DNA from: Flavobacteria bacterium BBFL7
GTDB lineage: Bacteria; Bacteroidota; Bacteroidia; Flavobacteriales; Flavobacteriaceae
Length of the DNA stretch: 64,000 nt
Reading direction: 5' to 3'
Assembly: GCA_000153385.1 (NCBI GenBank)
Contig: CH672375.1
Location: 354,352-418,351, forward strand
The position numbers were made by a program, and so were the translations under genes. The notes under the pieces were generated by a model, which did not search any database, was not told where the DNA came from, and worked only from the letters and a program-made list of their open reading frames with translations. Shown here one piece after another: positions 6 through 61,516 of the stretch (positions are counted from its first letter, which is position 1; every line of letters begins with the position of its first letter).

Positions 6-1478
6 TTATAAATTTTCAGGCATAACTGCGAGACTCTTGAACAAGTTAGCTTTAGAAATAAAAAGCTTTTTATAGGTATTGATTTCTTTGAGCTTTGAAT
101 CAATGAGTTTAATTTCTCGACTATTAATTAGAAATAGAGAGCTGTCTCCTAATTCAAATTTGCGTTCTTCACCTGTCAACATGATTTGTGAAGATGCTAC
201 TATATCAGTAATCATATTAACCTGTACATTATAAGAATCTAATTCATTAAAAATGCTAGTTACTTTATTTTTAATTTCTAGCTGTGTAGATGCTAGATCA
301 TACTGTGCATCGGCTATTTTAATTTGAGAAAGCTTTAAATCTCCACGCTCTTTTCTTAAAAACAATGGCATCGAAAAAGTAATACCTCCTTTATAATTTG
401 AAGTTTCAAAACTATTGAACTCATTCCATTCTGGTGATAAAAAGTTATAATCCAGTGTTAACTTAGGTAATAATTTATTTGCTTTTAACTTTCTATCTAT
501 ATCTAGTTGATCTATTTTAAAGTTTATGGATCGCAATTTTGGATGATTTTCTATAGTAAATTCATCTAAAGCAAATCCATAAATCTCAAGAGTTGTATCA
601 ATCTCAGTATTTAAATCTGATTGAGGAACAATATTAGATTGTAATTCTACAGGTACTTCATTAAGCCATAAAAAATTAGAAAGTTCAAGGCGCTGTTTAA
701 CTAATTGAATTCGAGCTTGCTCTCTATTTAGCGCTCTATTTTGAGCTGCAATACTTGCTTCTACTGTATCAATTGCTGCCTTATCACCTGCCTGAAAACT
801 ACTTTTAACTGCTTGAAATCTTATCTGTGCATTAACATAAAATTGATCATACACCTTATATTCTTCATGAATTTGCCACCATTTGAAATATGCAAGTGCC
901 GCTTCATATAAAACAGCATTTACTAATAAATCACGATCTACTAAACTTTGCTCATTGTAGATTTTTGCTTTGCGTAAAGTAGCCATACGGTCATTAATTA
1001 AAAAACCTTTACCTAGATTTACACTAACGCCTGCATTATATAATCCGTTTTCTGGAACTGTATTTGACGGATCTAGAAAAGTTCCCTCGTTGCGCTCTAC
1101 GCCAGCTTTAAATTCTATTCCATACCATGTTGGAATCTTAAACATTGCATTAAGTTGATCATAATACTCTGTACCTTTAAATTCTTTACGATCATAATCT
1201 ACCTCAATTTTGGGGTCAAATCCACCGCGAGAACGAAGCAAATTAGCCTGTCCACCATCGATGAGTAACTGCGCTTGCCTGGCGATAGGATGATGTGCTT
1301 TTACAAAACCCATATATTCTCTAAAACTCATCTCAGTTGAGTCTAGCGCAGTGGTTAATTGAAGTGTGGTTTGTGTCATACGCTTTCGCGAAAGCGGACT
1401 AGCCAACACCATAGAATGAATGAACAAACTTACTAGCAGTGTAAGTACGAACAGGAGATTACTTCTTCTTATCGGCAT
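6..1478 (-). CDS. TolC-family outer membrane efflux protein
   Basis: Outer-membrane channel subunit of a three-part exporter. The N-terminus reads as a Sec signal peptide (MPIRRSNLLFVLTLLVSLFI, then ...LASP), followed by about 460 residues of long alternating alpha-helical and beta segments typical of the OEP/TolC family, with the expected pseudo-repeat. The start at 1478 is chosen because the upstream in-frame ATG at 1520 lies deep in the preceding HlyD gene and gives no signal peptide; the chosen start still overlaps that gene by 20 bases, which suggests translational coupling. It is the last gene of the tetR-ABC-HlyD-TolC operon. A copy of the GCTTTCGCGAAAGC palindrome sits at the predicted signal cleavage region and encodes LSRKR. 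Family assignment is solid; the exported substrate is unknown. Confidence 0.88.
   Translation of the reverse strand: MPIRRSNLLFVLTLLVSLFIHSMVLASPLSRKRMTQTTLQLTTALDSTEMSFREYMGFVKAHHPIARQAQLLIDGGQANLLRSRGGFDPKIEVDYDRKEFKGTEYYDQLNAMFKIPTWYGIEFKAGVERNEGTFLDPSNTVPENGLYNAGVSVNLGKGFLINDRMATLRKAKIYNEQSLVDRDLLVNAVLYEAALAYFKWWQIHEEYKVYDQFYVNAQIRFQAVKSSFQAGDKAAIDTVEASIAAQNRALNREQARIQLVKQRLELSNFLWLNEVPVELQSNIVPQSDLNTEIDTTLEIYGFALDEFTIENHPKLRSINFKIDQLDIDRKLKANKLLPKLTLDYNFLSPEWNEFNSFETSNYKGGITFSMPLFLRKERGDLKLSQIKIADAQYDLASTQLEIKNKVTSIFNELDSYNVQVNMITDIVASSQIMLTGEERKFELGDSSLFLINSREIKLIDSKLKEINTYKKLFISKANLFKSLAVMPENL
1382..1395. repeat. GCTTTCGCGAAAGC palindrome, copy 1
   Basis: Perfect copy inside the TolC-like gene, read in the phase giving LSRK(R), just after the signal peptide. 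Confidence 0.9.
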
Positions 1479-2811
1479 CTTTTGTAGTTTTGGGCTGATA
1501 ATAATTAGGTGGAAAACCATTTAAACGTCGCCATAGCTCATACCAAATAGGTACATCTTCTAACAAAGCGATTGTGTAAGCACCTGAGCCAGCACGTAAT
1601 GCCGTAGGCCACGGATGATCATTCTCATCTGGAGCAAGCAGCACGCGATACTTACCATTATCACTAATAAAAGTTTCGACCGCTACTACTTTTGCGCCAT
1701 AGGTTCCATAGGAAACATTAGGCCAACCAGAAAAAACAATGGATGGCCATCCATCAAATTGCACACGAACTTCTTCTCCCAAATGAATGAGTGGTAAATC
1801 AAGCGGTTCTACATAAGTTTCTACCGCTAGATCATAGTCTGCAGGCATGACATTAACAAGCGGTTCACCTTCTTTAAAAGTTTCTCCTAATCCACCAAAG
1901 ATGGCCTTGTTGATATAACCATTTTGTGGTGCGGTAATAAAATAAAGATCATTACGCATTTGGTAATTTGTACGATCTGATTCTAATTTAGACACCTGAG
2001 CCTCTGCATCAAACTGACTGGACTGTGCGGTAAATTGATCACTTCTAGCTTTAGCAATTTTTTCTGCATACTCTTGTTGTATGCGGTTTAAATCGATTTG
2101 CGCGTTAATAATGTCATTACGACTCGTTAATAATTTATTTTCTTGGGAAATTAACTTTGCCTGAGTTTCCTGAGTTTTCAAACGCTTTTCCTCCACTTCA
2201 GTCATAGGTTTCAACCCTTCATTATTTAAGGTTTGAGCACGTTGTAATTGGGTTTCGGCAATTTTAAGATTGGTTTGGGCTGCTATGTAATCGATACTGT
2301 CTGTAGTCACTTTTAAACGTGATTGCATCAATTTATTACGTCCTTGTTCAAGTTTTAATTGTCTTTCTTGTACTAGTGCTGCAATTTGACTTTCTAATGC
2401 TTTTACTTTCTCACTATAAGAAGAAACACTCATAGTCTTAGCATCGATTTGTTGCCCAGTACGCTTTACTAGATTAGGATCAAAATATTCATTTTTGATC
2501 TCACTAATACGTAGGATCGTATCTCCTTTTGCGACAAAATCGCCTTCTCGCACCAACCATTGTTCGATTCTACCAGGTATAGGTGATTGAATTGTTTGTG
2601 GTCGTTGATCAGGTGTAAGTGTCGTCACATAACCATTACCGGTAACACTTTGTGTCCATGGTAAGAATAAAATAACGATGGAGGCTATAGCTGCACCTGT
2701 TAAAAACCTATTGAAATATTTATAGTGTCTACGTTCTAGAACACGCTGACCTGACTTATAATTTATAAGATCTAGCCTTTTCACTAATTCTGTTTGAGAA
2801 ATATTAAGCAT
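1459..2811 (-). CDS. HlyD-family periplasmic adaptor (membrane fusion protein)
   Basis: Adaptor that would link the inner-membrane ABC protein to the TolC-like channel. It has a cytoplasmic N-terminus of about 35 residues, one membrane segment at about 36-55 (GAAIASIVILFLPW), a biotinyl-lipoyl-like half motif (IPGRIEQWLVREGDFVAKGD) at about 80-100, a long helical coiled-coil hairpin rich in Gln, Glu and Lys at about 120-290, the second lipoyl half (ITAPQNGYINK) and a beta-barrel domain. The C-terminus ends in a lysine-rich tail. It starts 7 bases after the ABC gene stop. This is the architecture of HlyD/EmrA-type adaptors; 450 residues is normal for type I secretion or bacteriocin exporters. 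Confidence 0.9.
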   Translation of the reverse strand: MLNISQTELVKRLDLINYKSGQRVLERRHYKYFNRFLTGAAIASIVILFLPWTQSVTGNGYVTTLTPDQRPQTIQSPIPGRIEQWLVREGDFVAKGDTILRISEIKNEYFDPNLVKRTGQQIDAKTMSVSSYSEKVKALESQIAALVQERQLKLEQGRNKLMQSRLKVTTDSIDYIAAQTNLKIAETQLQRAQTLNNEGLKPMTEVEEKRLKTQETQAKLISQENKLLTSRNDIINAQIDLNRIQQEYAEKIAKARSDQFTAQSSQFDAEAQVSKLESDRTNYQMRNDLYFITAPQNGYINKAIFGGLGETFKEGEPLVNVMPADYDLAVETYVEPLDLPLIHLGEEVRVQFDGWPSIVFSGWPNVSYGTYGAKVVAVETFISDNGKYRVLLAPDENDHPWPTALRAGSGAYTIALLEDVPIWYELWRRLNGFPPNYYQPKTTKDADKKK

Positions 2812-7822: not shown

Positions 7823-7845
7823 CGTATTGATTTTTTAAAGTAGTA

Positions 7846-8922: not shown

Positions 8923-10010
8923 AACTCTAGGCTATCGATATCGTTCCAATGTGATTTTGCCATTATCGTTCCTTTATCTAAGAGTACAACTCCAGGATTA
9001 GAACGTATGATAGTCTTTAGCGCTGTTTCATCTGTCACATAAAATGTAGTTTCAAAACCGTAAGTTCTCATTAATTCTTGAGCCTGACTATCGCTAGAAG
9101 CACTTAAAGCTAAAACTTCATAACCGGCACTTTCGGCGCGATCGATAAAAGCATTTAATTTGTAAAGGCCTTCACTTTCAGACTTGCTTAAATTATAGGT
9201 AATAATCACAGCTATCTTCTCTTTGGAAAGAATATCTGTTGTAAAATCCTCACCGTTTCTCTCGATAGAAAAATCATGTATAGGTGGCACATAACCTTTC
9301 TCTACCAGTCGTGGCTCAACTTTATCATATTTAGGGTATCCACTAGGTGGAGCTCCTTCTGTAGACACAATTTCTTCTTTACCATCAATAGTATAATACC
9401 AGTCATATGCATATACATCTGGATTATCAGGATCTTCTGCCATTCCTTCTTCAATATTTACACCTACCTTATATGCTCTAAAATCTAGAATTGGTAAGTG
9501 CATTAACACATAGTAAGCTATTGCAAAACAAATTAAAGTAACTACTAAAATGATATATTTCAAAGACGCTTTCGCGAAAAGCGGTTGAATATACTTCATA
9601 TTAAAAAACAAAATGACTATTAATATGGTAAGTAATACATCTTTAAGGAAAGATTCAAAAGGCACTAATGGTATCGCGTCCCCAAAGCAACCACAGTCTG
9701 TCACTTTATCAAATGCCCAAGAATAAAAGGTTAAAAAAGTAAAGAAAACGATCATCAATAATAACGACCAAATTGTAAATTTCTTCTGGAAGCCGATAAG
9801 TAACATCACTCCTAAAACTACTTCAAAAATCACTAAGAAAATAGCAAGCGGTAATGCTAATGGCTGTAAAAACTCTAATCCTAACACCGCAGCACTAAAG
9901 TATTCGTCTAATTTGTATGAAAACCCTAGAGGATCATTTAACTTGATTAATCCACTGAAAATAAATAGGATACCAACAAACCATCTGCAAAATTGAACCA
10001 GTGCTTTCAT
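8919..10010 (-). CDS. DoxX/MauE-like membrane protein with thioredoxin-like C-terminal domain
   Basis: First gene of the operon. Four N-terminal membrane helices over about 1-145 match the DoxX/MauE class (RWFVGILFIFSGLIKLNDP), with the cysteine pair DCGCFGD in a loop at about 98-104. A fifth helix is at about 150-170. The periplasmic C-terminal half (about 180-363) looks like a thioredoxin-fold domain (KIAVIITYNLSKSESEGLYK, GYEVLALSASS, NPGVVLLDKG) but lacks a CxxC motif. Similar proteins are widespread in Bacteroidota as 'DoxX family' or 'BT_3928 family'. A role in periplasmic redox chemistry is inference. Confidence 0.8.
   Translation of the reverse strand: MKALVQFCRWFVGILFIFSGLIKLNDPLGFSYKLDEYFSAAVLGLEFLQPLALPLAIFLVIFEVVLGVMLLIGFQKKFTIWSLLLMIVFFTFLTFYSWAFDKVTDCGCFGDAIPLVPFESFLKDVLLTILIVILFFNMKYIQPLFAKASLKYIILVVTLICFAIAYYVLMHLPILDFRAYKVGVNIEEGMAEDPDNPDVYAYDWYYTIDGKEEIVSTEGAPPSGYPKYDKVEPRLVEKGYVPPIHDFSIERNGEDFTTDILSKEKIAVIITYNLSKSESEGLYKLNAFIDRAESAGYEVLALSASSDSQAQELMRTYGFETTFYVTDETALKTIIRSNPGVVLLDKGTIMAKSHWNDIDSLEL
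9567..9583. repeat. Degenerate palindrome copy (one extra A)
   Basis: CGCTTTCGCGAAAAGCG inside the DoxX-like gene: the palindrome with one inserted A in the right arm. Read as FAKAS; the reading frame is intact. Confidence 0.75.
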
Positions 10011-15307: not shown

Positions 15308-16273
15308 TTGGACACTGAGAATAACATTTTAGAAGTAGCAAAACGCACGATTCGTATCGAGTCTGCGGCCGTTAAAAACCTTGAAAATAGTTTGGATTCC
15401 GCTTTCGCGAAAGCAGTAAATCATATCCATACTGCTCAAGGAAGAGTCATTATTACCGGTATAGGTAAAAGTGCCATTATTGCGATGAAGATAGTAGCCA
15501 CAATGAATTCAACAGGTACGCCTGCTATTTTTATGCATGCTGCAGATGCCATACATGGAGATCTAGGAATCATACAAAAAAACGATGTGGTTATTTGTAT
15601 TTCAAAAAGTGGAAACACTCCAGAGATTAAAGTCCTCGTTCCTTTAATTAAAAATTTTGAAAATAAATTAATTGCTATAACGAGCCATCAAGATTCTTTT
15701 TTAGGTAAAGAAGCAGATTTTGTATTGCATGCACCTATTGAAGAAGAAGCGTGTCCAAACGGTCTGGCTCCTACCACAAGCACAACAGCTCAATTAGTTG
15801 TAGGTGATGCTCTCGCAATATGCTTACTAGAGTTAAAAGGATTTACTGATAAGGATTTTGCTCGTTACCATCCAGGTGGTGCATTAGGAAAAAAATTATA
15901 TTTAAGAGTCCAAGAACTTATTGATCAAAACGCAAAACCTCAAGTTACTTCTAATAGTACCTTAAGAGATGTGATTGTAAATATTTCAGAAAATCGACTA
16001 GGAATGACGGTAGTCGTAGATGAAACTAAACTTATCGGTATCATAACAGATGGTGATTTAAGACGCATGTTATCTACAGGTAAAAATATCGATAGTCTTA
16101 CAGCTGCAGATATTATGACTACATCTCCTAAAACTATCGATGCAGATGACATGGCTGTTCAAGCTCGCGAGGTGATGGAAGAATACAATGTTTCCCAATT
16201 AGTAGCAGTAAATAAAGATGGCTATGCAGGAGTAGTTCATATACATGATTTAATTAGAGAAGGAATTTTATAA
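15308..16273 (+). CDS. kdsD: D-arabinose 5-phosphate isomerase (KpsF/GutQ family)
   Basis: Converts ribulose 5-phosphate to arabinose 5-phosphate, the first committed step to Kdo for lipid A core. It has an SIS domain at about 40-180 (GRVIITGIGKSAIIAMKIVA, HGDLGIIQKNDVVICISKSG, ARYHPGGALGKKLY) and two CBS domains at about 205-320. The start is TTG: a stop lies just upstream in frame, the next in-frame ATG is far inside the SIS domain, and the family N-terminus (ILEVAKRTIRIESAAVKNL) is complete only from here. First gene of an operon with tatC, one base apart. A palindrome copy encodes AFAKA in the N-terminal helix. Confidence 0.94.
   Translation: MDTENNILEVAKRTIRIESAAVKNLENSLDSAFAKAVNHIHTAQGRVIITGIGKSAIIAMKIVATMNSTGTPAIFMHAADAIHGDLGIIQKNDVVICISKSGNTPEIKVLVPLIKNFENKLIAITSHQDSFLGKEADFVLHAPIEEEACPNGLAPTTSTTAQLVVGDALAICLLELKGFTDKDFARYHPGGALGKKLYLRVQELIDQNAKPQVTSNSTLRDVIVNISENRLGMTVVVDETKLIGIITDGDLRRMLSTGKNIDSLTAADIMTTSPKTIDADDMAVQAREVMEEYNVSQLVAVNKDGYAGVVHIHDLIREGIL
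15401..15414. repeat. GCTTTCGCGAAAGC palindrome, copy 3
   Basis: Perfect copy inside kdsD, read as SAFAKA in the N-terminal helix before the SIS core. Confidence 0.9.
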
Positions 16274-39227: not shown

Positions 39228-40835
39228 ATGAAGTTTACAAGTCTCCTTCTCGCATTATTATCTGGTATATTATTATGGTTAGGATGGCCTACTTATGGTT
39301 TTCCTTTACTATTATTTGGTGCTTTTGTGCCTTTATTAATTACTGAACAGTACATCAGAAAAACTAATTTGAAGAATAAAGGATGGCGTGTTTTAGGACT
39401 ATCCTATCTCAGTTTTTTTATTTGGAATATGGCTACTACCTGGTGGTTATATCTCGCTACAGGATTTGGAATGTGGTTTGCTGTCTTGGTAAACAGTTTA
39501 TTAATGTCATTAGTATTTTTAATCTATCATCAATTTGCCAGGAAAGCTTCTCAAGGAGCTGCATTTACATTTTTAATATGTCTATGGATGAGCTTTGAAT
39601 ACATGCACTTGCATTGGGACTTTTCATGGCCATGGCTTAATCTAGGTAATGGATTTAGTGAGTTTACCAATTGGATACAATGGTATGAATATACTGGAAC
39701 TTTTGGAGGAACTTTATGGATATGGTTATTAAATATCGTTTTGTTTTATACTATTACACGCTTGCGCGAAAACGGATTTACCTTAAAAAATCTACTGATC
39801 AAGTTGCTCACACCAATTGGTATCATTTTAATACCTATTGCAATTTCTCAAATCATAAGACTCAATAACTTTGAAATCAATAAAGGAAAAGGTACCGAAA
39901 TACTTATTATCCAACCCAATATTGATCCATATAAAGAAAAGTACAACACCAGTAATGATAAGGTAGCTCAACTTATCATTGATCTTGCCCTACCTGAATT
40001 GACCCAAGACACAGAGTTTATTATCGCACCAGAAACTGTCATAGCAGATAATATAAGAATTAGCCAAGTTCCTTATCATCCAACTTTACAAAGATTAAAA
40101 GGCAACTTCTCCTCTTTTCCTAATTTAAGTTACCTAGGTGGTATATCACTAGTTGATGTCTTTAAAAATCCAGCACAAGCAACTAGTCAAACTAATCTAG
40201 CTAGTGATGGCGTTACTTATTATAATGATTATAACAGTGCCATGTTTTTTAATTCTTCAGGCCCGACAGAACTTTATCACAAATCAAAACTAGTAGTAGG
40301 TGTTGAAAATTTTCCTTATAAAGGATTATTACAGCCTGTATTAGGTGACGCAATGATCGATTTGGGCGGAACGGTATCTACTAAAACAACACAAAAAGAA
40401 CGTAGCGTTTTCACATCTTTTAATAAAACCCATATAGCACCAATTATATGTTATGAATCAGTTTATGGAGAATATGTAACTGATTATGTAAATAATGATG
40501 CAGATTTCCTCGCTATTATTACTAATGATGCGTGGTGGGGTAATACACAAGGCCATCAACAACATTTAAGTCTAGCAAGGTTAAGAGCGATTGAGTCTAG
40601 ACGATGGATTGTTAGAAGTGCTAATACTGGAATTAGTGCCATAATTGACCATCGCGGTAACATTATTCAGTCATTAGGTTATGGTAAACAAGGTATAATA
40701 AGTGGTACAATTAGGAAACGTGATAACATTACTTTTTATGTAAAACATGGTGACTATATAGTTCGAGTAGCAATGTTTATGGGGATTTTCACTCTTCTTT
40801 TTGCCTATACAAAACGTCGTAAAAAACATTCTTAA
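39228..40835 (+). CDS. lnt: Apolipoprotein N-acyltransferase
   Basis: Adds the third acyl chain to lipoproteins on the periplasmic face. About seven N-terminal membrane helices (residues 1-200) precede a nitrilase-fold catalytic domain at about 220-500 with the Glu-Lys-Cys triad: Glu269 in FIIAPETVIA, Lys352 in YHKSKLVVGVENFPY, and Cys408 in PIICYESVYG. A last membrane helix lies at about 510-528. The LxxFGEY loop reads VGVENFPY, as in other Bacteroidota. Consistent with the many lipoproteins in this window. A weak degenerate palindrome (CGCTTGCGCGAAAACGG) sits at 39769-39785. Confidence 0.95.
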   Translation: MKFTSLLLALLSGILLWLGWPTYGFPLLLFGAFVPLLITEQYIRKTNLKNKGWRVLGLSYLSFFIWNMATTWWLYLATGFGMWFAVLVNSLLMSLVFLIYHQFARKASQGAAFTFLICLWMSFEYMHLHWDFSWPWLNLGNGFSEFTNWIQWYEYTGTFGGTLWIWLLNIVLFYTITRLRENGFTLKNLLIKLLTPIGIILIPIAISQIIRLNNFEINKGKGTEILIIQPNIDPYKEKYNTSNDKVAQLIIDLALPELTQDTEFIIAPETVIADNIRISQVPYHPTLQRLKGNFSSFPNLSYLGGISLVDVFKNPAQATSQTNLASDGVTYYNDYNSAMFFNSSGPTELYHKSKLVVGVENFPYKGLLQPVLGDAMIDLGGTVSTKTTQKERSVFTSFNKTHIAPIICYESVYGEYVTDYVNNDADFLAIITNDAWWGNTQGHQQHLSLARLRAIESRRWIVRSANTGISAIIDHRGNIIQSLGYGKQGIISGTIRKRDNITFYVKHGDYIVRVAMFMGIFTLLFAYTKRRKKHS

Positions 40836-42279: not shown

Positions 42280-43293
42280 TTACCCTTCAAATAATTGAAG
42301 CCATAGTAGTTTAACTTTATTCCAATCAAAATTTTCGGCAGTTGCTCGAGCATTTTCCGATACTTGCTCACATTCAATTCTATTATTTATCAAGTAGGTA
42401 ATATGACTCACCATTTCATCAACTTGAAAAGGTTTAGTGAGAAAACCATTTTCTGAATTTTTGATCAAGTAAGGAATACCTCCTACATCTGTTGATACTA
42501 CAGGAAAACCCAGCGCCATAGCTTCTATTACACTTACCGGAAGGTTATCAAAATTAGAGGTGTTTAAAAAAATATCATAATTATCACTTAACGTGATCCA
42601 ATCTTCTTTATCGAGCAACCCAGTAAATTCTACCGTTAAATTCTTTTGAGCTGCAATAGAGATACATTTCTTCATCGAACCATCTTTATCCGGTCCGACC
42701 ATGCATAGCTGCGCATCAGGGAATTTTTCAGATAAAACATCAAGTACTTCTAGCGCCATTTCAGGATTATAAATATCTGCAAATGACCTGACCCATAGTA
42801 ATCGAGGTTTTATCTCAGCTCTCTTTTTAAATGTATACTTTTTTAAATCAATATGATTTGGAATTTTTATCAGCTGTTTGTAGTTCGCTTTCGCGAAAGC
42901 GTCTATCAAATAATCACTAGGACTCACCACAGTATGTGCATTATTAATAAAGGCCTGAAAAGCTTTGGGATTTTTAAGTAATCGATCTGGTAAATTCCCA
43001 CCATGCAATATAGGTATATATCTAATCTTTAAAGACTTACACAACCTTGCTATTGTTATAGCGTACCAAAAATTACGAGTACTATACGTATCAATTAAAA
43101 CGAAATGAGCCCAATTTCTACTTAAAAAAGTTAAACGCATCATATGCAGTAACCTTGCGCTTGTATTTTGCACTGATGAGGCATAACGTAATTTAAACCC
43201 TTCTTGCTGAAGTAATGGGCCAAGTATATCTATAGTGGTAGCAGTGCGACCTTTATCTGCTAACTTATTGCCTATGTATAAAATATTTTTCAT
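42280..43293 (-). CDS. Glycosyltransferase, family 4 (GT-B)
   Basis: Retaining GT-B glycosyltransferase. The nucleotide-sugar half is clear at about 165-330: RLLWVRSFADIYNPEMALEV, LCMVGPDKDGSMKKC, and the EX7E-like region SNFDNLPVSVIEAMALGFPV with VSTDVGGIPYLI. The N-terminal half is shorter than usual for GT4 (337 residues in total). It overlaps the polymerase stop by one base. A palindrome copy encodes DAFAKANYK in the interdomain region. Confidence 0.88.
   Translation of the reverse strand: MKNILYIGNKLADKGRTATTIDILGPLLQQEGFKLRYASSVQNTSARLLHMMRLTFLSRNWAHFVLIDTYSTRNFWYAITIARLCKSLKIRYIPILHGGNLPDRLLKNPKAFQAFINNAHTVVSPSDYLIDAFAKANYKQLIKIPNHIDLKKYTFKKRAEIKPRLLWVRSFADIYNPEMALEVLDVLSEKFPDAQLCMVGPDKDGSMKKCISIAAQKNLTVEFTGLLDKEDWITLSDNYDIFLNTSNFDNLPVSVIEAMALGFPVVSTDVGGIPYLIKNSENGFLTKPFQVDEMVSHITYLINNRIECEQVSENARATAENFDWNKVKLLWLQLFEG
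42887..42900. repeat. GCTTTCGCGAAAGC palindrome, copy 8
   Basis: Perfect copy in the GT4 gene, read as DAFAKA near the hinge between the two GT-B halves. Confidence 0.9.
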
Positions 43294-45733: not shown

Positions 45734-46875
45734 GACTGAAGCAATTTAATTATTTCGGTTTCAAACTTCTCTAACGTATAATCTTGTGACCACTCTTGTG
45801 CGTTTTGAGATAATAAATTGAAATCTTCTTGCTGATTTAAAAATTGTTTTATAGTTGCAATGGTGTTGTCTATATCTGTAAAAATAATACCTCTAGAACC
45901 TAAACTTTTATTATCACTTACACCTAACATCCATGGAATACAACTTACTGCTGTCGCTATAGGAATGCAACCATACCACATAGATTCTGCAACAGCCTTG
46001 GGCCAGCCTTCACTCTGTGATGCTAGAAACGAAAAATGAGCTTTCTTATAACCGGCTTGAACTATTTCTTTAGGTTGATTACCGTAGAAGTGAAAAGCTT
46101 TTTCTGAGCCGTTTAAACTATTTACTTCAATTAATGAACTTTCATTTTTAACCTTATCCATTAAAATACCATCTCCATAAAAATGAGCTTGAGATACTAT
46201 TCCTTTATGATTCAATAGCTTAATAAGTTCGACTAATAATTGCGGATTCTTATTAGGAGAAAGTGTCCCTACAAAAATAAATTGTAGTGGTTCTTTAAAC
46301 TCTTTTTTAAAGTGTTTCTTATCCTTTTCTGAATAGGTTGCTGTAAAAAACGATTTGATATTTCTAGACTGACCACTCCATTTTCCATAAACTAATACAT
46401 CGATATTTTTAGACAGACTAGTATTTGACAATATTCGCTTCTGCCATCTGTAAGAAAGAGGTTGAGATGCATTAGGACTAAAATTACCTGCGTACTTTAT
46501 AGTTTTACGCTTTCGCGGAAGGGTAATTTGAACAATGCTGGCAAGTAAAGCCAAATTCCCTGGACATCTTACATGGATATGATGTGCTTTGCGCATGGCA
46601 TTCCATAAAATAATAATCTGATATGGAATGGTGATTAACGAAATTAATGCCGAAATAATGTTATGAAACTCTAATCGCCTGAGGGAAGTTATTTTAAAAT
46701 CTTGTTCTTGAAAAGGCTGTGTTAATAGTTTGCGTTGATATCGCGTAGGACATACAAATGAAATATCGCTAGCATGCTGCATCCATAAATCCATCTCACG
46801 AACATATGGTGCATATGCTTCTTTTTTATCTGAGAGACGCAAAATAGGAGCGTCTGATATAATGAGCAGTTTCAT
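45730..46875 (-). CDS. Glycosyltransferase, family 4-like
   Basis: GT-B fold of 381 residues. Donor domain: LQFIFVGTLSPNKNPQLLVE, FHFYGNQPKEIVQAGYKKAH, and SEGWPKAVAESMWYGCIPIA with SCIPWML. The N-terminal half is divergent (LLIISDAPILRLSDKKEAYA). Overlaps its neighbours by four bases on each side. A partial palindrome (46507-46522) encodes PRKRK in the N-terminal half. Confidence 0.85.
   Translation of the reverse strand: MKLLIISDAPILRLSDKKEAYAPYVREMDLWMQHASDISFVCPTRYQRKLLTQPFQEQDFKITSLRRLEFHNIISALISLITIPYQIIILWNAMRKAHHIHVRCPGNLALLASIVQITLPRKRKTIKYAGNFSPNASQPLSYRWQKRILSNTSLSKNIDVLVYGKWSGQSRNIKSFFTATYSEKDKKHFKKEFKEPLQFIFVGTLSPNKNPQLLVELIKLLNHKGIVSQAHFYGDGILMDKVKNESSLIEVNSLNGSEKAFHFYGNQPKEIVQAGYKKAHFSFLASQSEGWPKAVAESMWYGCIPIATAVSCIPWMLGVSDNKSLGSRGIIFTDIDNTIATIKQFLNQQEDFNLLSQNAQEWSQDYTLEKFETEIIKLLQS
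46507..46522. repeat. Degenerate palindrome copy
   Basis: ACGCTTTCGCGGAAGG: left arm intact, right arm with two changes. Read in the RKR phase. Confidence 0.5.
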
Positions 46876-47420: not shown

Positions 47421-48412
47421 TAATTAGGTTTATTGAAAATCAAACTTAAGATCCCAACGGTTCTACCCATCGCCTCTGTAAAAGCTTCTTTACGTTCACT
47501 AGTAGTAAAGATATTGAGAAATCTAATAGAAGTAAGCAATGCTGTAATTTGATACCATTTCATCTTGTTTTTAAATGACGGGTTGGGATGCTTAACACGC
47601 CATACATACCAGCCATTGCGCACTACCATTTTACCGTATCTATACTTATTAGGTCTTCCTGCTGCGTCGTGGTGGTGTTCTAATTGTGCTGCTGTATTCA
47701 CATACAAATCTCCTATATTAGATAATCGCAATGTAAAATCTGCATCTTCATAAAGACCGTAACCTTCAAAATATTCTGAAAACTTATGCTCTTTTAAAAC
47801 AGCAAGAGGAAAACTTGAAACACCACCCATTAACTGTTCTACTTTATAAATTTTACCAGATGGAGGCAAGAAACTTATAGATCTACCATGGCCAAACTCT
47901 GGATAAACAGCAGGTTGTGTCATTTGAGCCAGTCCTAATTTTCTTCTTAGTTTGTAACGACTACTCTCGACTCTCCTATAACCATCGTAATAATAGTAGT
48001 TTAAATCTGCTGGATTTTCTTTTGATGATTCTTCCCAAGAAACTTCGTTTGTGATATAACCACCTACTCCTACTGCTTTTGGATATTGAGCATAAGTAGA
48101 TACTAAATTCTCAAAGTAATCTGAATTTAAAATCGTGTCGTCATCTAAGAAAGCGACAATATCCATATCACCTTGCACTCGTTCAATACCATAATTACGT
48201 TGTTTGGTAAGACCACGATGATCTGGCGGCACTTTGTGATATTTTAAAATATTGTTTTCGCTTTCGCGAAAGCGAGATCCCGTATCATCATCTGTAGAAC
48301 CATCGATAATTAAAACCTCATCAGGCACTTGAGTTTGTACCATAACCGATTCCATAAGTCTAGTTAGAGGTTCTGGTCGCATGTAGGTGCATATGATGAG
48401 AGAAAGATTCAA
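47420..48412 (-). CDS. Glycosyltransferase, family 2 (GT-A)
   Basis: GT-A inverting transferase of 330 residues. N-terminal NLSLIICTYMRPEPLTRLME, first Asp motif LIIDGSTDD, DxD-like FLDDDTIL at about 90, and GYGLYEDADFTLRLSNIGDL with the ED motif before the catalytic region. No clear membrane helix. A palindrome copy is read here in the FRES phase, between the donor-site strands. One-base overlap with the acyltransferase gene. Confidence 0.9.
   Translation of the reverse strand: MNLSLIICTYMRPEPLTRLMESVMVQTQVPDEVLIIDGSTDDDTGSRFRESENNILKYHKVPPDHRGLTKQRNYGIERVQGDMDIVAFLDDDTILNSDYFENLVSTYAQYPKAVGVGGYITNEVSWEESSKENPADLNYYYYDGYRRVESSRYKLRRKLGLAQMTQPAVYPEFGHGRSISFLPPSGKIYKVEQLMGGVSSFPLAVLKEHKFSEYFEGYGLYEDADFTLRLSNIGDLYVNTAAQLEHHHDAAGRPNKYRYGKMVVRNGWYVWRVKHPNPSFKNKMKWYQITALLTSIRFLNIFTTSERKEAFTEAMGRTVGILSLIFNKPN
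48260..48273. repeat. GCTTTCGCGAAAGC palindrome, copy 9
   Basis: Perfect copy in the GT2 gene, read in a different phase from most, giving SRFRESE. Confidence 0.9.
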
Positions 48413-49445: not shown

Positions 49446-50932
49446 AATTGCTTAGCCCATTTTTCACTCAAGTTCCATGCTTGCTTATACTTTGCATAAT
49501 GTTTCCATGGAATCTTAGTTCCAAAAGCACCATAGGTTTTAAAAAATTGCACCATTTTATAACCTAATAATTGTTTATGCGTATAATTTTTTTTGCGATA
49601 ATACATAATTTGAGGTGAAGGCTTCGGCTGTACATCTTCGTTATTCCATGGAAACACATGTGATTGTCTAAATCCACCTATAGGAGCTTTTAAATGCAAA
49701 ATTTGAATTTGCGGTGCATAGATCACATCATATCCAGCATTACGTATTTGCATTCCAAAATCGACATCTTCTCCATAGCCATGCTCTAGTGCCATATCAA
49801 AATTACATTGTTCTAATACATCTCTATGAACTATAGAACAACCTGAACCAAGAAACGGCCACTGTTTGAAAGTTTTTTGAGACTCAATTTCTCCTTTTTG
49901 AAGATACGCCATATTTAACACAGCTGTCTTAGTAATAGATAAACTATTAAAAATACGTTCGATTAAATTTTTATCAAATCTATTATCATCATCAAATAGT
50001 AATACCCATGGTGATCTTGTATGCGCTATCGCAATATTACGAGCATTACAAGCGCCCGTTTGATGTATAAATTTATGGATGATTTTAAAAGACCAATTCT
50101 CATTATTTAAAAAACCCAAATCAGAGCTAGAACTATGATCGCCATTTTGTTCAATTATTATTACTTGTTGAGGCTTTATAGTTTGTTGGTCAAGATCGAG
50201 CAGTACATCTTTAAGATAAGAAGCTCTTCCCATTGTTGGAATTATGACATCATAACGTTTCTCCATATCACTCTCTGGCACTGAATACTGTATGGGTTCT
50301 AATCTTAGTGTATAATTCAGTTGTCTTTTAAATAACGCTTTCGCGAAAGCAAGAATAGGAAACTTTTTTTCATAACATATCTGGCATAGCAATAGAAAAA
50401 AGATCCATGATTTCTTTTTAGTTTGAGCTATGAATGAGAATACCTCTGAATTTGAGATTTGAGTACGTTCTCTAGAAAGTTGAGAATAACAAAAAAGACC
50501 TTGAGACTGATAGATTTTGGTAAATAGATTTAAATCATAAATCCAATTACCCGTAGATTTAAATTCTGTTTCTTGTTGAAGAACACTTGAATGAATTAAA
50601 CCAATATTATCACTCATCATCCAAGTAGGATACCATTGATCTTCTTTAAAGTTAATAAAAGGTGTATCATCTACATAATCTATAGAGTCCCTTAAAAAGT
50701 CAGGAGCTGAACCTTTACTTAGCACCATATAAGGGACAGTTGCTTTATTAAGTAAGTCATTCCAATCTGAAACTGGTCTTTCTATAGAAGTCCATCCTAT
50801 CCATTGTTGAGGAAACTTGCGAGCCAACTCCTTTAAATGGTCGAAGGTTGTTCCAGCGTCTAATTTTAGTTCATTATTATTTAAATAAGCCTTATCAAAA
50901 TCCGGATTTATATGTGATTTGAGAATGATCAT
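49442..50932 (-). CDS. Two-domain glycosyltransferase, unknown N-terminal domain plus GT2
   Basis: 496 residues. Residues about 225-480 are a GT2 domain: RYDVIIPTMGRASYLKDVLL, VIIIEQNGD, TGACNARNIAIAHTRSPWVL, LLFDDDNRF (DxD) and EHGYGEDVDFGMQIRNAGYD. Residues 1-215 form a domain I do not recognise (KFPQQWIGWTSIERPVSDWN, DLNLFTKIYQSQGLFCYSQL); its WIGW, NLFTKIY pattern suggests a degenerate second GT-A-like unit. A palindrome copy at the domain junction encodes LAFAKALFK. Confidence 0.85.
   Translation of the reverse strand: MIILKSHINPDFDKAYLNNNELKLDAGTTFDHLKELARKFPQQWIGWTSIERPVSDWNDLLNKATVPYMVLSKGSAPDFLRDSIDYVDDTPFINFKEDQWYPTWMMSDNIGLIHSSVLQQETEFKSTGNWIYDLNLFTKIYQSQGLFCYSQLSRERTQISNSEVFSFIAQTKKKSWIFFLLLCQICYEKKFPILAFAKALFKRQLNYTLRLEPIQYSVPESDMEKRYDVIIPTMGRASYLKDVLLDLDQQTIKPQQVIIIEQNGDHSSSSDLGFLNNENWSFKIIHKFIHQTGACNARNIAIAHTRSPWVLLFDDDNRFDKNLIERIFNSLSITKTAVLNMAYLQKGEIESQKTFKQWPFLGSGCSIVHRDVLEQCNFDMALEHGYGEDVDFGMQIRNAGYDVIYAPQIQILHLKAPIGGFRQSHVFPWNNEDVQPKPSPQIMYYRKKNYTHKQLLGYKMVQFFKTYGAFGTKIPWKHYAKYKQAWNLSEKWAKQL
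50337..50350. repeat. GCTTTCGCGAAAGC palindrome, copy 10
   Basis: Perfect copy in the two-domain GT gene, read as LAFAKAL in the linker between the unknown domain and the GT2 domain. Confidence 0.9.
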
Positions 50933-52071: not shown

Positions 52072-53474
52072 TATTCTATAATTCTTTTAATCCCATCCCA
52101 TATACGTTCACTCGCTTTTTCTGGAGATTCAGGTTTATTAACTATTCCATACCACTTTTTAGTAATAGGTACTGGATCTAAATCACCATCCAGCAATCCT
52201 TTAATTCCATCATATATTTCTGACTTATTCATCGCCCAAATGACCGATGTATCATAATCTGGCATAGAACGGAAGTGAACATACTTATAATTTTGTCCTA
52301 TATCACGTGTTCCTTTTTTGAGTTGCGGTTGCTCATAGTTAGGATAAATAGTGGGCTTACCGTGCGCTACAAAATCAAACACCATACTAGAGCAAATGTT
52401 AACCACAAGTTCACTGTGGTGACAAGTATTCACTAATAATGTAAAATCCTCTTTGGTAGGCATTACTTGATTCCACTGGCTTCCCAAAGGTTTCCATAAA
52501 GGATCTATAGGTGTAATGACATCTTTATATTCTTCAAGTACCTTATCATAACGACCCGAAAAGTCTATAGGTACTTTACGATAAATAATCGCCACATCTC
52601 GACCTTCTTCACGCAGCTTACGTATGGCGATAGCTGTATCTTCTAAATAATATTGGTCTAGCGGAGAAGTCGTCTGATCATCTCCTGAAAAACAGATGTA
52701 TTTAGTGTCTTCATTTAAACCATGACCTTCACAAAAACGCTTTCGCGAAAGCAATATAGAAGCATCATAATGAGGCTCAAATTGAGGTGTTCCTGTAACA
52801 AATATTTGTTTTTCTCTGGTTTTAGGGTAATATTCTAGCAGTTGCGATTTCATCAAATCTGACCAAACAAAATAATAATCAGTTTCAACGGTGGTCATTC
52901 CTTTAGGAAGATTATCCCAACTGTAAATCCAGCACGCAGTTTTAATCCCAAGATCTTTTGCAGCAAGAATAGGTGCAATAGCTTGTGTTGCTCGTTGAGT
53001 GGTGCAAAAAACCAGATCTGGCCGATGCTCTTTTAGTTGCGCCTTAACTTCTTGATACCGTTGTGTAGAACGTTCGGCAGCATTCATTTGATCCATCAAG
53101 CGTTGCCAGCCTTTAGGTGTAGCGCTAAAGGTTTCATGAAATTTTACAAAAGAACTTTTAGCTATATTCTTAATACTATTCCATCGTAGTGGAAATCTGT
53201 AGGTAGGATACACCTTATCCTTAGTCCGCTTTCGCGAAAGCGATAACTCCACTCTTTTACGAGCATGATTGATTACCGGTGTTTTAGGATGTATTCTAGT
53301 ACTTTCTATCTTTAATTCTGGATAGCCCGACTCTTTTTCAAGAGAAAAGATAGTATTATTCCAATATGTAATATCAAAGCCTTGTTGCTCACCGATTTCT
53401 TTGAATTCAGTAAACGCAAAATTGCGCAGTCCTACGCCGTCAGGGAAAAGAATGAAAATTTTAGGGTTAGACAT
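52071..53474 (-). CDS. Putative GT-B-like surface-glycan protein, family not recognised
   Basis: 467 residues, no signal peptide or membrane helix. It begins IFILFPDGVGLRNFAFTEF; a central region AAKDLGIKTACWIYSWDNLP with KGMTTVETDYYFVWSDLMK and IFVTGTPQFEPHY, then VVNICSSMVFDFVAHGKPTI, resembles the donor half of CDP-glycerol or UDP-glycosyltransferase-type GT-B enzymes. Function as a transferase or glycerophosphotransferase is inference. Notable for containing two perfect palindromes, both in the LSRKR phase. It precedes the GT4 gene with a one-base overlap and follows an intergenic repeat. Confidence 0.7.
   Translation of the reverse strand: MSNPKIFILFPDGVGLRNFAFTEFKEIGEQQGFDITYWNNTIFSLEKESGYPELKIESTRIHPKTPVINHARKRVELSLSRKRTKDKVYPTYRFPLRWNSIKNIAKSSFVKFHETFSATPKGWQRLMDQMNAAERSTQRYQEVKAQLKEHRPDLVFCTTQRATQAIAPILAAKDLGIKTACWIYSWDNLPKGMTTVETDYYFVWSDLMKSQLLEYYPKTREKQIFVTGTPQFEPHYDASILLSRKRFCEGHGLNEDTKYICFSGDDQTTSPLDQYYLEDTAIAIRKLREEGRDVAIIYRKVPIDFSGRYDKVLEEYKDVITPIDPLWKPLGSQWNQVMPTKEDFTLLVNTCHHSELVVNICSSMVFDFVAHGKPTIYPNYEQPQLKKGTRDIGQNYKYVHFRSMPDYDTSVIWAMNKSEIYDGIKGLLDGDLDPVPITKKWYGIVNKPESPEKASERIWDGIKRIIE
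52739..52752. repeat. GCTTTCGCGAAAGC palindrome, copy 11
   Basis: Perfect copy, read as LLSRKRF. Confidence 0.9.
53228..53241. repeat. GCTTTCGCGAAAGC palindrome, copy 12
   Basis: Perfect copy in the same gene as copy 11 and 489 bases from it, read as LSLSRKRT. The two copies share the reading phase and the peptide LSRKR. Confidence 0.9.
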
Positions 53475-53618: not shown

Positions 53619-53624
53619 TTCTAT

Positions 53625-55656: not shown

Positions 55657-55719
55657 AGATATAGGGTTGTGAGCAAATTTAAGGAATCAAGACGATAACC
55701 TTAATATAATTTAATATAA

Positions 55720-56847
55720 TCAACAATTAATCGAAGTATAGGCTTTTATGACTTGTTGTGTAATTTTATAACGACTAAGCATAGGTAAAATATGAGTTGT
55801 ATTATGAGCTACTCCACCTTCTAAAAGAGTTTTATTAGAAATTGCTTTATGAATAATTGCTTGAATATGTTTTACATCTTCACATTCTTCTATAAGCAAT
55901 CCATTTGTACCATTTTCTATAAGCTCAGCTGTAGCTCCACCAGGATTTGATTGAATAGGGAAAGCCCCAGCACAAATAGCTTCTAGTAGCGTATTAGGCA
56001 TTCCATCGCTGTTTGAATTCCCTATATAAATCAAGGATTCCCCAAAAAGCTCCAGTATTTGGTCGTGATTTAAAATCGCTTTTATAGTTAGGTTTTTAAT
56101 CTGATCTGTCTCAAAATTTAAAATTAGGGAATTAGTAGCTCCAAAAACAATAACTTCTAAATGGTCGATATGTTCCCCTAGTTGCTCTAATGCTTTTAAT
56201 ACCTGTAGGGCTCTTCCCGAGCGATTATGATTTCCTTTAACAGCAACGATTTTACGATTTTCAAAAGGGATTTTATAGTTCTCAATTAATTCCAAATCAA
56301 AACCACCGCCACCAGGAAAAACTCCTAAATGAGTTCCGTTAAAACCTAGTTCATTTGCTATTTGTTGATCGCGCTTACAGTCTGCAAACATATAATTTAA
56401 TCGTGGCAAGACGGCTTGAATGTCTTTTAAGTAATCTGGTTTATTTTTATAATAAAACAAATCACTTCCCCATGATGAATAAATCCATGGAATGCTGTTC
56501 TTGAGCATTACAGAAAGTATAGGTGATGCACTTATATACAATGCAAAACTATGAACGAGATCTGGTTGTATTTCTTGTAAGGCATTCGCAAAAGCATCTT
56601 CCACCTTATTATCGTATTTATGAACGAGTGCGTTGAATAATTTAGGAAGTTTACTCTTTAAAATGCTACGTCCACGTTTTTTCAAAAAACCTTTTTTCCA
56701 TCCTGTAATTTGAGTCATCCAGCTCATGGATGGTGCATATCCTTGATCAAGTATATCAAACCAATAAACGTCAAATCCACTATCTCGCAACTGGTCAGAC
56801 CAGCGACGGAAATGTATCGAATTCATGGAAACTAAGAGGATTTTCAT
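55720..56847 (-). CDS. Glycosyltransferase, family 4 (GT-B)
   Basis: 375 residues. N-terminus ILLVSMNSIHFRRWSDQLRD, with the segment SFALYISASPILSVMLKNSI. The donor domain has IVAVKGNHNRSGRALQVLKA, HLEVIVFGATNSLI and IYIGNSNSDGMPNTLLEAIC, then AGAFPIQSNPGGATAELIEN. The sequence resembles the 4-alpha-glycosyltransferase/FucNAc-type branch but specificity is unknown. The stop lies 63 bases before the CMP-nonulosonate synthetase gene; a 4-base overlap joins it to the GT2 gene upstream. Confidence 0.88.
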   Translation of the reverse strand: MKILLVSMNSIHFRRWSDQLRDSGFDVYWFDILDQGYAPSMSWMTQITGWKKGFLKKRGRSILKSKLPKLFNALVHKYDNKVEDAFANALQEIQPDLVHSFALYISASPILSVMLKNSIPWIYSSWGSDLFYYKNKPDYLKDIQAVLPRLNYMFADCKRDQQIANELGFNGTHLGVFPGGGGFDLELIENYKIPFENRKIVAVKGNHNRSGRALQVLKALEQLGEHIDHLEVIVFGATNSLILNFETDQIKNLTIKAILNHDQILELFGESLIYIGNSNSDGMPNTLLEAICAGAFPIQSNPGGATAELIENGTNGLLIEECEDVKHIQAIIHKAISNKTLLEGGVAHNTTHILPMLSRYKITQQVIKAYTSINC

Positions 56848-57755: not shown

Positions 57756-57770
57756 ACTGAGTTAAATCTT

Positions 57771-58715: not shown

Positions 58716-58720
58716 AATTC

Positions 58721-60456: not shown

Positions 60457-61516
60457 AAAGCATAATTTTAAGAGATATAGACTCTTTTGAATAACTATAA
60501 AAATAAGGTAAGTTTCTATAACGATTGACTATTTCTAGAAGTATCATATCGTTTACGGCTGCGGCATCTAGAAAATATTGTTTGGGCTTTAAATAATTCT
60601 TGATTTTAGCAGTCCATGAAACTTCCTCTTTTATAAAACGAATCTCAATCACTTTGTTAAGACCCATAATAGGTAAACTAGCTAGCGTGGCAATTACATT
60701 GTTCTTCTCAAAGTTTACAGATATTAATTCTTCAGTAGTCTCTAGTCTACCATAATCTTGCTCAACAGGCATAAGTCCAAAACTATAATGTAGGTTTGAC
60801 TGGACAAGTTTGTGTTTTTTAACGATTTCGGTACGTTGATGATTGATTTTTTCAAGTTGTGTGTGAAATATAGATCCTAGATTTAAACTTCTATAAGCCT
60901 TTTCATGCCATTGATGTTTAAAGTAAATCTCGCTTTCGCGGAAGCGGACTTCATAACCAGCATTTCTCAATCGCAAATGAACATCTGTATCCTCACTGCC
61001 CCAACCGTGATAAAACTCATCAAAACCATTAATTTCTAACAGCTGATGAACTGGAAAAATAGAGATTCCAGTAGCCTCTTCATTGGACATAAACTTGATA
61101 GTTCTTTGATGAAAACTCACATCCTTCACAGACTCTTCTTGAGACATAAAACCAACTGAGAAATAAGATGTACTCTTATTATCGAGCAGCGGCAACATTG
61201 TTTCTAAAAAATCCGGATGCCAAATTAAGTCCATGTCAGACACCATTAAATGTGTTGCTGTGGTGTTTTTTAATATCAAATTAATGCAGCGCGATTTATT
61301 CCATAGCTGACCTTGAACTGGGCAAGTAATCAATTCTATTCCTTTGAAACCATCAATAACTTCCTTGAGCTGGCGCTGATATGAAAGAGCACTACCATAA
61401 TCCACGAGAGTAATCGTTACATGATCTATTAGTTGAGGATGAATAGATTTTAACGATTGCTTTACGATTTTTAAATCCCGATTGCGATTAGGAATAACGA
61501 TAGTGAGTTTTTCCAT
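60449..61516 (-). CDS. Glycosyltransferase, family 2 with galactosyltransferase-type C-terminus
   Basis: 355 residues. GT-A start KLTIVIPNRNRDLKIVKQSL, LVDYGSALSYQRQL, and a DxD in THLMVSDMDLIWHPDFLETM. The segment GFDEFYHGWGSEDTDVHLRL matches the galactosyltransferase C-terminal (Glyco_transf_7C) motif with the catalytic ED pair. The C-terminal 100 residues are unassigned. It overlaps the aminotransferase gene by 8 bases. A near-perfect palindrome (60932-60945, one mismatch) is read as RFRES. Confidence 0.9.
   Translation of the reverse strand: MEKLTIVIPNRNRDLKIVKQSLKSIHPQLIDHVTITLVDYGSALSYQRQLKEVIDGFKGIELITCPVQGQLWNKSRCINLILKNTTATHLMVSDMDLIWHPDFLETMLPLLDNKSTSYFSVGFMSQEESVKDVSFHQRTIKFMSNEEATGISIFPVHQLLEINGFDEFYHGWGSEDTDVHLRLRNAGYEVRFRESEIYFKHQWHEKAYRSLNLGSIFHTQLEKINHQRTEIVKKHKLVQSNLHYSFGLMPVEQDYGRLETTEELISVNFEKNNVIATLASLPIMGLNKVIEIRFIKEEVSWTAKIKNYLKPKQYFLDAAAVNDMILLEIVNRYRNLPYFYSYSKESISLKIMLCE
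60932..60945. repeat. Near-perfect palindrome copy (one mismatch)
   Basis: GCTTTCGCGGAAGC in the GT2 gene, read as RFRESE, the same phase as copy 9. Confidence 0.75.

What the first reader, a model, noticed from the sequence alone, without database searches (positions are those of the whole stretch)
1382..60945. Highly iterated 14-bp palindrome GCTTTCGCGAAAGC inside genes, read in all three phases
Seen directly: perfect copies start at 1382, 6274, 15401, 25994, 29347, 35475, 38115, 42887, 48260, 50337, 52739 and 53228. At about 37% GC, a simple base-composition estimate expects far less than 0.001 copies in 64 kb. All perfect copies fall within coding sequence (not surprising given >90% coding). 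They are read as AFAKA (8), LSRK (3) or FRES (1), so selection or spread acts on DNA, not peptide. Copies sit at variable positions: signal peptide end, linkers, non-core helices. In meaB and prmA the peptide replaces residues that homologues also have, suggesting substitution or conversion and not clean insertion. This is a HIP1-like element. Possible roles include a binding site for a nucleoid protein, methylation or restriction signal, uptake signal, or a recombination or repair signal.
Basis: partly seen in the sequence, partly recalled or inferred. Interest (0 to 1): 0.8.

Follow-up and report, generated by a model that had tools for sequence, protein, structure and literature searches.

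The report
Evenly spaced palindrome across Nonlabens genomes
Marine bacteria of the genus Nonlabens, and a few relatives, carry one exact short palindrome hundreds of times, spread evenly along the chromosome and kept in place over evolution, which looks like a self-DNA recognition signal that we did not find described.

Summary
Confirmed and extended. GCTTTCGCGAAAGC occurs 12 times in the window and 551 times in the 3.10-Mb genome; Markov models of order 3-5 expect 0.0005-1.9. All 23 genomes of the genus (Nonlabens, by contig-length match) hold 288-857 copies, one Dokdonia 857 and one unnamed genus 408; every other genome sampled holds 0-19. The element is longer than reported: free of coding constraint it reads TACGCTTTCGCGAAAGCGTA, with a T-rich left and an A-rich right flank. 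'Inside genes' is a quirk of this window: intergenic density is 5.5 times coding density. Sites are strikingly even, and near-matches keep their distance too. Copies come and go by small changes in place, not insertion. Two DNA-methyltransferase families and a Noc-like ParB do not explain it. These traits fit DNA uptake sequences (Haemophilus, Neisseria) better than HIP1, and Flavobacteriaceae can be naturally competent. What reads the site was not found; a chromosome-architecture site is the main rival. No paper in the library searched contains the 14-mer.

The parts
1382..1395 (.). perfect site, in TolC-like outer-membrane efflux gene 6-1520 (-), read LSRK
   Evidence: PF02321
6274..6287 (.). 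perfect site, in prmA 5655-6506 (-), read AFAKA
15401..15414 (.). perfect site, in KpsF/GutQ-family sugar-phosphate isomerase 15308-16273 (+), AFAKA
25994..26007 (.). perfect site, in meaB 25844-26857 (+), AFAKA
29347..29360 (.). perfect site, in leukotriene-A4-hydrolase-like aminopeptidase 27601-29460 (+) (below the NCBIfam cut-off), AFAKA
35475..35488 (.). perfect site, near the C-terminal end (residue 180 of 196) of PAP2 phosphatase gene 35435-36025 (-), AFAKA
38115..38128 (.). perfect site, at residue 16 of porV2-type gene 38070-39152 (+), AFAKA
42887..42900 (.). perfect site, in glycosyltransferase-like gene 42280-43293 (-), AFAKA
48260..48273 (.). perfect site, in family-2 glycosyltransferase 47420-48412 (-), FRES
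50337..50350 (.). perfect site, in family-2 glycosyltransferase 49442-50932 (-), AFAKA
52739..52752 (.). perfect site, in ORF 52071-53474 (-) without a Pfam match, LSRK
53228..53241 (.). perfect site, second in ORF 52071-53474 (-), LSRK; this 489-bp pair is the closest among the 100 listed sites of contig C1
60932..60945 (.). one-mismatch site GCTTTCGCGGAAGC, changed at the tolerant position 5/10, in an 11-kb gap between perfect sites
9568..9581 (.). two-mismatch site in the 9.1-kb gap 6274-15401; G002 has a perfect copy at the orthologous place, differing by one base of A-run length
39760..39773 (.). two-mismatch site; G009 has a perfect copy at the orthologous place
46509..46522 (.). two-mismatch site between perfect sites 42887 and 48260
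56582..56595 (.). two-mismatch site in the gap after 53228

Best explanation
The palindrome (core GCTTTCGCGAAAGC, full form about TACGCTTTCGCGAAAGCGTA with T-rich left and A-rich right flanks) is a chromosome-wide recognition site for a dedicated, probably dimeric, DNA-binding machine. Most likely it is a DNA-uptake (self-DNA) signal of naturally competent Nonlabens and Dokdonia. A surface or periplasmic receptor would favour fragments that carry the site. Recombination of such fragments would then restore and spread the site at homologous places (molecular drive), wherever coding constraint allows and no other site is already on the same fragment, giving one site per about 5 kb. Shown: excess, extended motif, flank bias, even spacing, spacing of near-matches, intergenic preference in the own genome and Dokdonia, turnover by small changes in place, conservation of position, lineage limits. 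Inferred: competence of these genera, binding by a dimer, uptake, drive. Not found: the receptor.
For: 551 copies against at most 1.9 expected. All 23 genus genomes hold 288-857; one Dokdonia genome 857 and one of an unnamed genus 408. Core plus AT-biased flanks: third-codon bases within 18 bp are T:A 172:56 on the left and 64:142 on the right (56 sites of four Nonlabens genomes, odds ratio 6.8, p 1e-20); 25-60 bp out the odds ratio is 1.7 (p 1e-4). Intergenic consensus of 20 bp. Coding 106 per Mb, intergenic 577 per Mb, p 3e-12; Dokdonia 19 of 33 outside ORFs. Turnover in place: the 8 changed orthologues differ inside the 14-mer by base changes only, none is an empty site. Spacing: CV 0.58 against 0.99, 1 of 99 gaps under 1 kb against 17.3; 0 of 37 near-matches within 1 kb of a perfect site against 8.4. 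Two near-identical phages of a Persicivirga/Nonlabens host have no site even with 2 mismatches. For Haemophilus and Neisseria uptake sequences these traits are in print: point-mutational origin, depletion in coding and newly acquired DNA, AT-tracts (Haemophilus), drive (PMC7811141, passages and one section); significant even spacing after Karlin and a noncoding excess (PMC1939737, passages). Riemerella, also Flavobacteriaceae, is naturally competent and needs a DUF5689 protein and an outer-membrane protein encoded beside it (PMC8459023, passages and one section); DUF5689 is in 40 of 40 genomes searched, and an ORF of 906-974 aa stands beside it in 20 of 20 read (domain checked for G000 only).
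Against: No test of uptake or competence in these genera was found. Known uptake sequences are not palindromic. The lack of close pairs is stronger than in Haemophilus, where 23% of strong USS lie within 100 bp of another, and PMC1939737 itself calls uptake sequences 'not as evenly spaced' as compaction sites would be: this speaks for the architecture rival. The DUF5689 and barrel proteins show 0 positions that separate 9 motif-bearing from 11 other genomes, but control pairs give almost 0 too (means 0.04 and 0.15), so the test is weak; their trees do not group the motif bearers. The 18 other genomes (17 genera) looked at have no palindrome of 12 bp or more occurring more than twice in 20 kb, unlike the dialects of Neisseriaceae. 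A phage-like contig of unknown host holds 3 sites in 11.3 kb. In stretches of three other Nonlabens orthologous to the window only 4 of 38 sites are intergenic, no excess.
Confidence: 0.45

Rival explanations
1. Chromosome-architecture site: a nucleoid-associated or condensin-linked protein, acquired by Nonlabens and Dokdonia, binds the palindrome; a regular lattice of one anchor per about 5 kb is selected, and close pairs are disfavoured.
For: Very even spacing and near-matches filling gaps; no trend of density with distance from parS over 25 stretches of contig C2 (Spearman -0.04, p 0.83); a palindromic, AT-flanked site suits a DNA-bending dimer; sites conserved at orthologous places at about 75% identity, 7 of 7 aligned in G002; uptake sequences are said to be less even than compaction sites would be (PMC1939737).
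Against: No candidate protein found; no Noc-like ParB paralogue. 551-857 redundant sites kept so nearly perfect (94 one-mismatch against 551) would need selection on each. Restriction to three genera among those sampled is odd for a core chromosome function.
Confidence: 0.28
2. Self-marker for a nuclease, Chi-like or defence: DNA lacking the site for more than about 10 kb is attacked; the site protects resident DNA.
For: Density of one per 5.6 kb; two phages of a Persicivirga/Nonlabens host lack it; one accessory 20-kb stretch has none; patchy distribution.
Against: Chi sites are short, non-palindromic and directional (recalled). A maximum-gap rule alone does not explain the lack of close pairs. 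The two phages are near-copies and count as one.
Confidence: 0.1
3. HIP1-type element made by methylation-directed repair around an orphan methyltransferase site.
For: Highly iterated palindrome with a CGCG core, present in coding DNA. TTCGCGAA occurs 6 times outside the 14-mer against 1.2 expected, though near-matches of the 14-mer may account for these.
Against: N6_N4 and C5 methyltransferase families both absent in G007 (752 copies) and G009 (563 copies). The 12-mer core occurs 93 times for 92 14-mers; TCGCGA outside the motif 54 observed, 54.7 expected. One-mismatch forms cluster at position 5 (14 of 25), not at the ends as for HIP1. Other methyltransferase families were not tested.
Confidence: 0.06
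4. Mobile palindrome (REP/RAYT-like) that inserts copies.
For: Intergenic excess; perfect palindrome.
Against: Aligned orthologous places without a perfect copy show no clean gap of motif size; they differ by base changes, once by a single-base indel in an A-run (G002 against window 9568), apart from single-base deletions in G001. Symmetric flanks, so no one-sided REP tag (tag recalled).
Confidence: 0.02
5. Selection on the peptide AFAKA, or on an mRNA hairpin or terminator.
For: AFAKA is the commonest reading, 39 of 62 coding sites.
Against: Three frames and intergenic copies. Flanks are T-rich left and A-rich right, the reverse of a terminator. Of 7 variant sites inside ORFs, read in sense, 4 give a C.A mismatch, 2 another mismatch and 1 a G.U wobble, so pairing is not preserved.
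Confidence: 0.01

Closest known systems
Uptake signal sequences of Pasteurellaceae (USS) and DNA uptake sequences of Neisseriaceae (DUS)
   Same: hundreds to thousands of copies; core plus AT-biased flanks (USS); gain and loss by point mutation; depleted in coding DNA; spread over the genome; one-off copies few in at least one case (here 94 for 551 perfect; K. oralis 5918 perfect, +21% with one change, passage of PMC3630211, which elsewhere says one-off forms are more numerous)
   Different: perfect 14-20 bp palindrome; stronger lack of close pairs; in Bacteroidota, where the outer-membrane genes found in Riemerella are not type IV pilus genes; no uptake data; no dialect seen in 17 other genera
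HIP1 and alternate HIPs of cyanobacteria
   Same: highly iterated palindrome, in genes, in most members of a group
   Different: 14-20 bp instead of 8; neither of two methyltransferase families present throughout; different mismatch pattern; one per 5.6 kb instead of about one per 1 kb (PMC4390886, abstract and part of one section)
Noc/ParB-type binding sites (parS, NBS)
   Same: 14-16 bp contiguous palindrome (recalled)
   Different: hundreds of copies genome-wide; each motif-rich genome keeps one ~300-aa ParB and parS: perfect in five Nonlabens, with one change in G250 and G234
REP sequences with RAYT transposases
   Same: palindromic repeats with intergenic preference (recalled)
   Different: no insertion footprint seen, symmetric

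Membership tests
DNA uptake sequences (USS/DUS) | preferred uptake or transformation of DNA that carries the motif | not testable with these tools
   needs a wet experiment
DNA uptake sequences (USS/DUS) | gross genomic excess of one short motif | tested here: met
   551 against at most 1.9 expected
DNA uptake sequences (USS/DUS) | evolves by point mutation, not insertion | tested here: met
   one single-base indel case (window 9568 against G002)
DNA uptake sequences (USS/DUS) | depleted in coding DNA | tested here: met
   106 and 577 per Mb in the own genome, Dokdonia likewise; not seen in window-orthologous stretches of three relatives
DNA uptake sequences (USS/DUS) | depleted in newly acquired DNA | tested here: inconclusive
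   one site-free accessory stretch and two near-identical phages without sites, but a phage-like contig with three
DNA uptake sequences (USS/DUS) | specific receptor (ComP in Neisseria) | tested here: inconclusive
   DUF5689/barrel pair present; no motif-specific signature, in a test of low power
HIP1/HIP | highly iterated palindrome in most members of a clade | tested here: met
   23 of 23 genomes of the genus
HIP1/HIP | resident methyltransferase for the site or its core | tested here: not met
   PF01555 and PF00145 both absent in two of 13 motif-rich genomes; other families not tested
HIP1/HIP | one-off forms deviate at first and last base | tested here: not met
   14 of 25 at position 5, 3 of 25 at position 1
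Noc/ParB sites | dedicated ParB paralogue | tested here: not met
   one ~300-aa ParB per motif-rich genome, plus a 616-aa relative in G014 and G019 only
REP/RAYT | copies arise by insertion | tested here: not met
   transposase genes were not searched for
Chi | short, directional, non-palindromic site | tested here: not met
   site is a perfect palindrome; the definition is recalled

The most novel reading that the evidence does not exclude
The first palindromic DNA-uptake or self-recognition signal, and the first in the Bacteroidota, shared letter for letter by Nonlabens and Dokdonia, which are not recovered as sisters in a SecA tree (backbone unresolved). It would be a common 'mating language' that lets these marine genera exchange DNA preferentially, kept by molecular drive so strictly that it sets a regular 5-kb beat along the chromosome.
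Probability: 0.4. Interest if true: 0.85.

Novelty: new variant of a known kind. Interest (0 to 1): 0.74.

Why it matters
Uptake sequences are well established in two proteobacterial families (recalled; the papers read here treat these two). A further, independent and palindromic system in an abundant marine phylum would show that self-DNA recognition evolved again, give a handle on gene flow in the ocean, and tell makers of genetic tools for these bacteria to add the site to transforming DNA. If the site turns out to be architectural instead, it is a regular 5-kb lattice that makes bacterial chromosome folding directly testable. Either way the motif is very sharp: 551 perfect copies, only 94 with one change.

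Tried and rejected
Noc-like ParB: rejected. Methyltransferase link: not met for two families; others untested. Receptor in the DUF5689/barrel pair: present everywhere looked, no signature, weak test. A family-wide dialect system: no palindrome of 12 bp or more occurring more than twice in 20 kb of each of 18 other genomes (one stretch has masked bases). Ori-ter gradient: none on contig C2, with the origin assumed at parS. RNA hairpin or terminator: flanks and variants speak against it. A toy model of fragment redundancy gives even spacing, but it was built to do so and is not counted as evidence. The fold and the pattern added nothing. Results pooled over related genomes share orthologous sites, so the near-match test was repeated on the own genome alone. 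G001: 6 of 11 aligned sites perfect, 4 with single-base deletions inside the motif, 1 base change; I take the deletions for sequencing errors and left G001 out of later pools. Sites without an alignment were dropped from the orthologue counts. Paper searches without a relevant hit: the 14-mer (0 papers), TTTCGCGAAA (10 papers, none relevant by title and abstract), Dokdonia/Nonlabens combinations (listings only), uptake sequence with Flavobacteri (0 papers).


Full report
What is there. The window holds 12 perfect copies of GCTTTCGCGAAAGC at the stated coordinates, one copy with one change and four with two changes, against 0.19 expected. All 12 lie in ORFs and are read AFAKA 8, LSRK 3 and FRES 1. 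The genome, 3,103,424 bases in 7 contigs of which the window is C1:354352-418351, holds 551 perfect copies and 645 with up to one change. The reversed control pattern gives 0. Markov expectation scaled to the genome lies between 0.0005 and 1.9 for orders 3-5, the highest figure coming from a model trained with the motif left in.

Who has it. One search covered 59 genomes: all 23 of the genus hold 288-857 copies; of the other 36 one holds 6 and the rest none. One search covered 299 genomes of the family: 61 have a match, five of them 408 or more (three of the own genus, G234 with 408, G250 with 857), the other 56 have 1-19. One search covered 295 genomes of the class: 16 have a match, the own genome and 15 others with 1-4 copies. 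Contig lengths equate G001 with N. ulvanivorans JCM 19298, G250 with Dokdonia sinensis and G145 with Altibacter lentus (my inference). In a SecA tree of 25 rows the Nonlabens form one clade, and G234, G250 and G188 another; G188 has only 9 copies. The backbone is unresolved and the root was set at the midpoint, so one or two origins remain open. Several low-copy genera carry a pair of sites exactly 933 bp apart; in the one read it lies in a TolC-like gene of what looks like a metal-resistance cluster (my reading of the ORFs, no family search), so some stray copies look horizontally carried.

The motif is larger than reported. In 129 Nonlabens sites the base before the 14-mer is C in 88% (mirrored 3'), and in 57 Dokdonia sites in 81%. 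In 35 intergenic sites (16 Nonlabens, 17 Dokdonia, 2 of the third genus) the consensus is TACGCTTTCGCGAAAGCGTA: 28 of 35 have the perfect 16-mer and 12 of 35 the perfect 20-mer. Flanks to about 18 bp are T-rich and C-poor on the left, A-rich and G-poor on the right. At third codon positions, where the protein constrains little, T:A is 172:56 on the left and 64:142 on the right (56 sites of G000, G002, G005 and G009, some of them orthologous; p 1e-20, odds ratio 6.8); 25-60 bp out the odds ratio is 1.7 (p 1e-4). One-change forms cluster at position 5 of the half-site: 14 of 25 in the own genome.

Not mainly a gene feature. In 644 kb of the own genome (window plus 29 stretches of 20 kb) 62 of 95 sites lie in ORFs of at least 80 aa and 33 outside, while noncoding DNA is 8.9%: 106 against 577 per Mb, p 3e-12. 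Frames among coding sites are 39 AFAKA, 14 FRES, 9 LSRK. Dokdonia: 14 of 33 in ORFs, p 5e-10. Against this, the stretches of G002, G005 and G009 orthologous to the window show 34 of 38 in ORFs, no excess outside.

Even spacing. The first 100 listed sites of contig C1 have a mean gap of 5192 bp and a coefficient of variation of 0.58, against 0.99 for random placement (none of 20,000 simulations as low); 1 of 99 gaps is under 1 kb, 17.3 expected. Listed sites of G003, G250, G018 and contig C2 agree; G234 with 13 sites is suggestive only (p 0.07). Over the 30 own-genome pieces 1 of 66 gaps is under 1 kb (11.5 expected), and 0 of 37 near-matches lie within 1 kb of a perfect site (8.4 expected). 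The largest of the 99 gaps (21.8 kb) holds three one-change sites in the part read. So near-matches behave as working sites. Counts in 25 stretches of contig C2 show no trend with distance from parS (Spearman -0.04, p 0.83); contig C1 was not part of that test.

History. Of the window's sites 11 of 12 are perfect in G011, 8 of 10 aligned in G016, 7 of 7 aligned in G002 (about 75% identity), 3 of 5 in G009, 1 of 3 in G005, 6 of 11 in G001, where 4 have a single-base deletion that I take for sequencing error. With further stretches, 15 of 17 aligned own sites are perfect in G011 and 15 of 18 in G016; reversed, 15 of 16 and 15 of 17. Inside the 14-mer the 8 changed copies differ by base changes only; one pair (G002 against window 9568) differs by one base of an A-run. 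No empty site was seen.

Tests of mechanism. Among 40 genomes (13 motif-rich, 27 others) N6_N4 methyltransferases are absent from 5 of the 13 motif-rich and C5 methyltransferases from 6 of the 13; G007 and G009 have neither. Of inner cores outside the 14-mer, the 12-mer and TCGCGA show no excess; TTCGCGAA shows a small one, 6 against 1.2. A Noc-type ParB paralogue is absent; parS persists, perfect in five Nonlabens and with one change in G250 and G234. The uptake pair known from Riemerella (DUF5689 protein and outer-membrane protein; PMC8459023) is represented: DUF5689 in 40 of 40 genomes, with an ORF of 906-974 aa beside it in 20 of 20 read (domains checked for G000). No residue separates 9 motif-bearing from 11 other genomes, but control groupings give almost none either, so this is a weak test; neither tree groups the motif bearers. 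ComEC and DprA were not searched for. Two near-identical phages of a Persicivirga/Nonlabens host have no site within 2 changes in 35.7 kb each, where about 3.8 each would be expected at coding density; a phage-like contig of unknown host has 3 in 11.3 kb.

Reading. Published traits of uptake sequences are that they evolve by point mutation, are depleted in coding and newly acquired DNA, have (in Haemophilus) a core with AT-tracts, and are relatively evenly distributed as expected from molecular drive (PMC7811141, passages and one section; PMC1939737, passages, which also says they are less even than compaction sites would be). This element shows most of them, in a family where competence is established for Riemerella. 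The palindromic form, the strong lack of close pairs and the missing receptor keep the claim below one half; a chromosome-architecture site is the main rival. It behaves like an uptake sequence in the genome; it cannot be filed as one until uptake is measured. The 14-mer occurs in no paper of the library searched.

Noticed in passing
L068:115-1332 and places in G145, G122, G259, G131: A TolC-like gene with two sites exactly 933 bp apart, next to ORFs that I read as a multicopper oxidase, a heavy-metal-associated-domain protein and a metal P-type ATPase (no family search); the same 933-bp pair recurs in several genera and looks like a horizontally spread metal-resistance island.
   Followed up: partly
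L303-L305 (G001): Four of 11 aligned motif sites have a single-base deletion inside the palindrome; probably sequencing errors, so the motif may be an error hot spot that breaks gene calls.
   Followed up: no
L287:1-20000 (G000 C2 start): A 20-kb stretch without any site and only 65% coding: a reverse-transcriptase gene, a MORN-repeat protein, a transglutaminase-like protein and several ORFs of repeated lengths, all on one strand; an accessory or immunity-like array.
   Followed up: partly
L189:1-11283 (IMGVR_UViG_2617271332): A phage-like contig (my reading of its ORFs) carries three sites at host density, whereas phages P12024S and P12024L carry none.
   Followed up: partly
L347 and L353: Two 20-kb stretches of very low GC (26.2% and 27.5%) in the same chromosome, which nevertheless carry 3 and 2 sites.
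   Followed up: no
window 11835-11867 (-): DUF805b RNA motif, the only Rfam match at gathering score in the window.
   Followed up: no
window 42280-61516: A long run of minus-strand genes with several glycosyltransferases, probably a polysaccharide biosynthesis cluster; it carries 5 of the 12 perfect sites.
   Followed up: no
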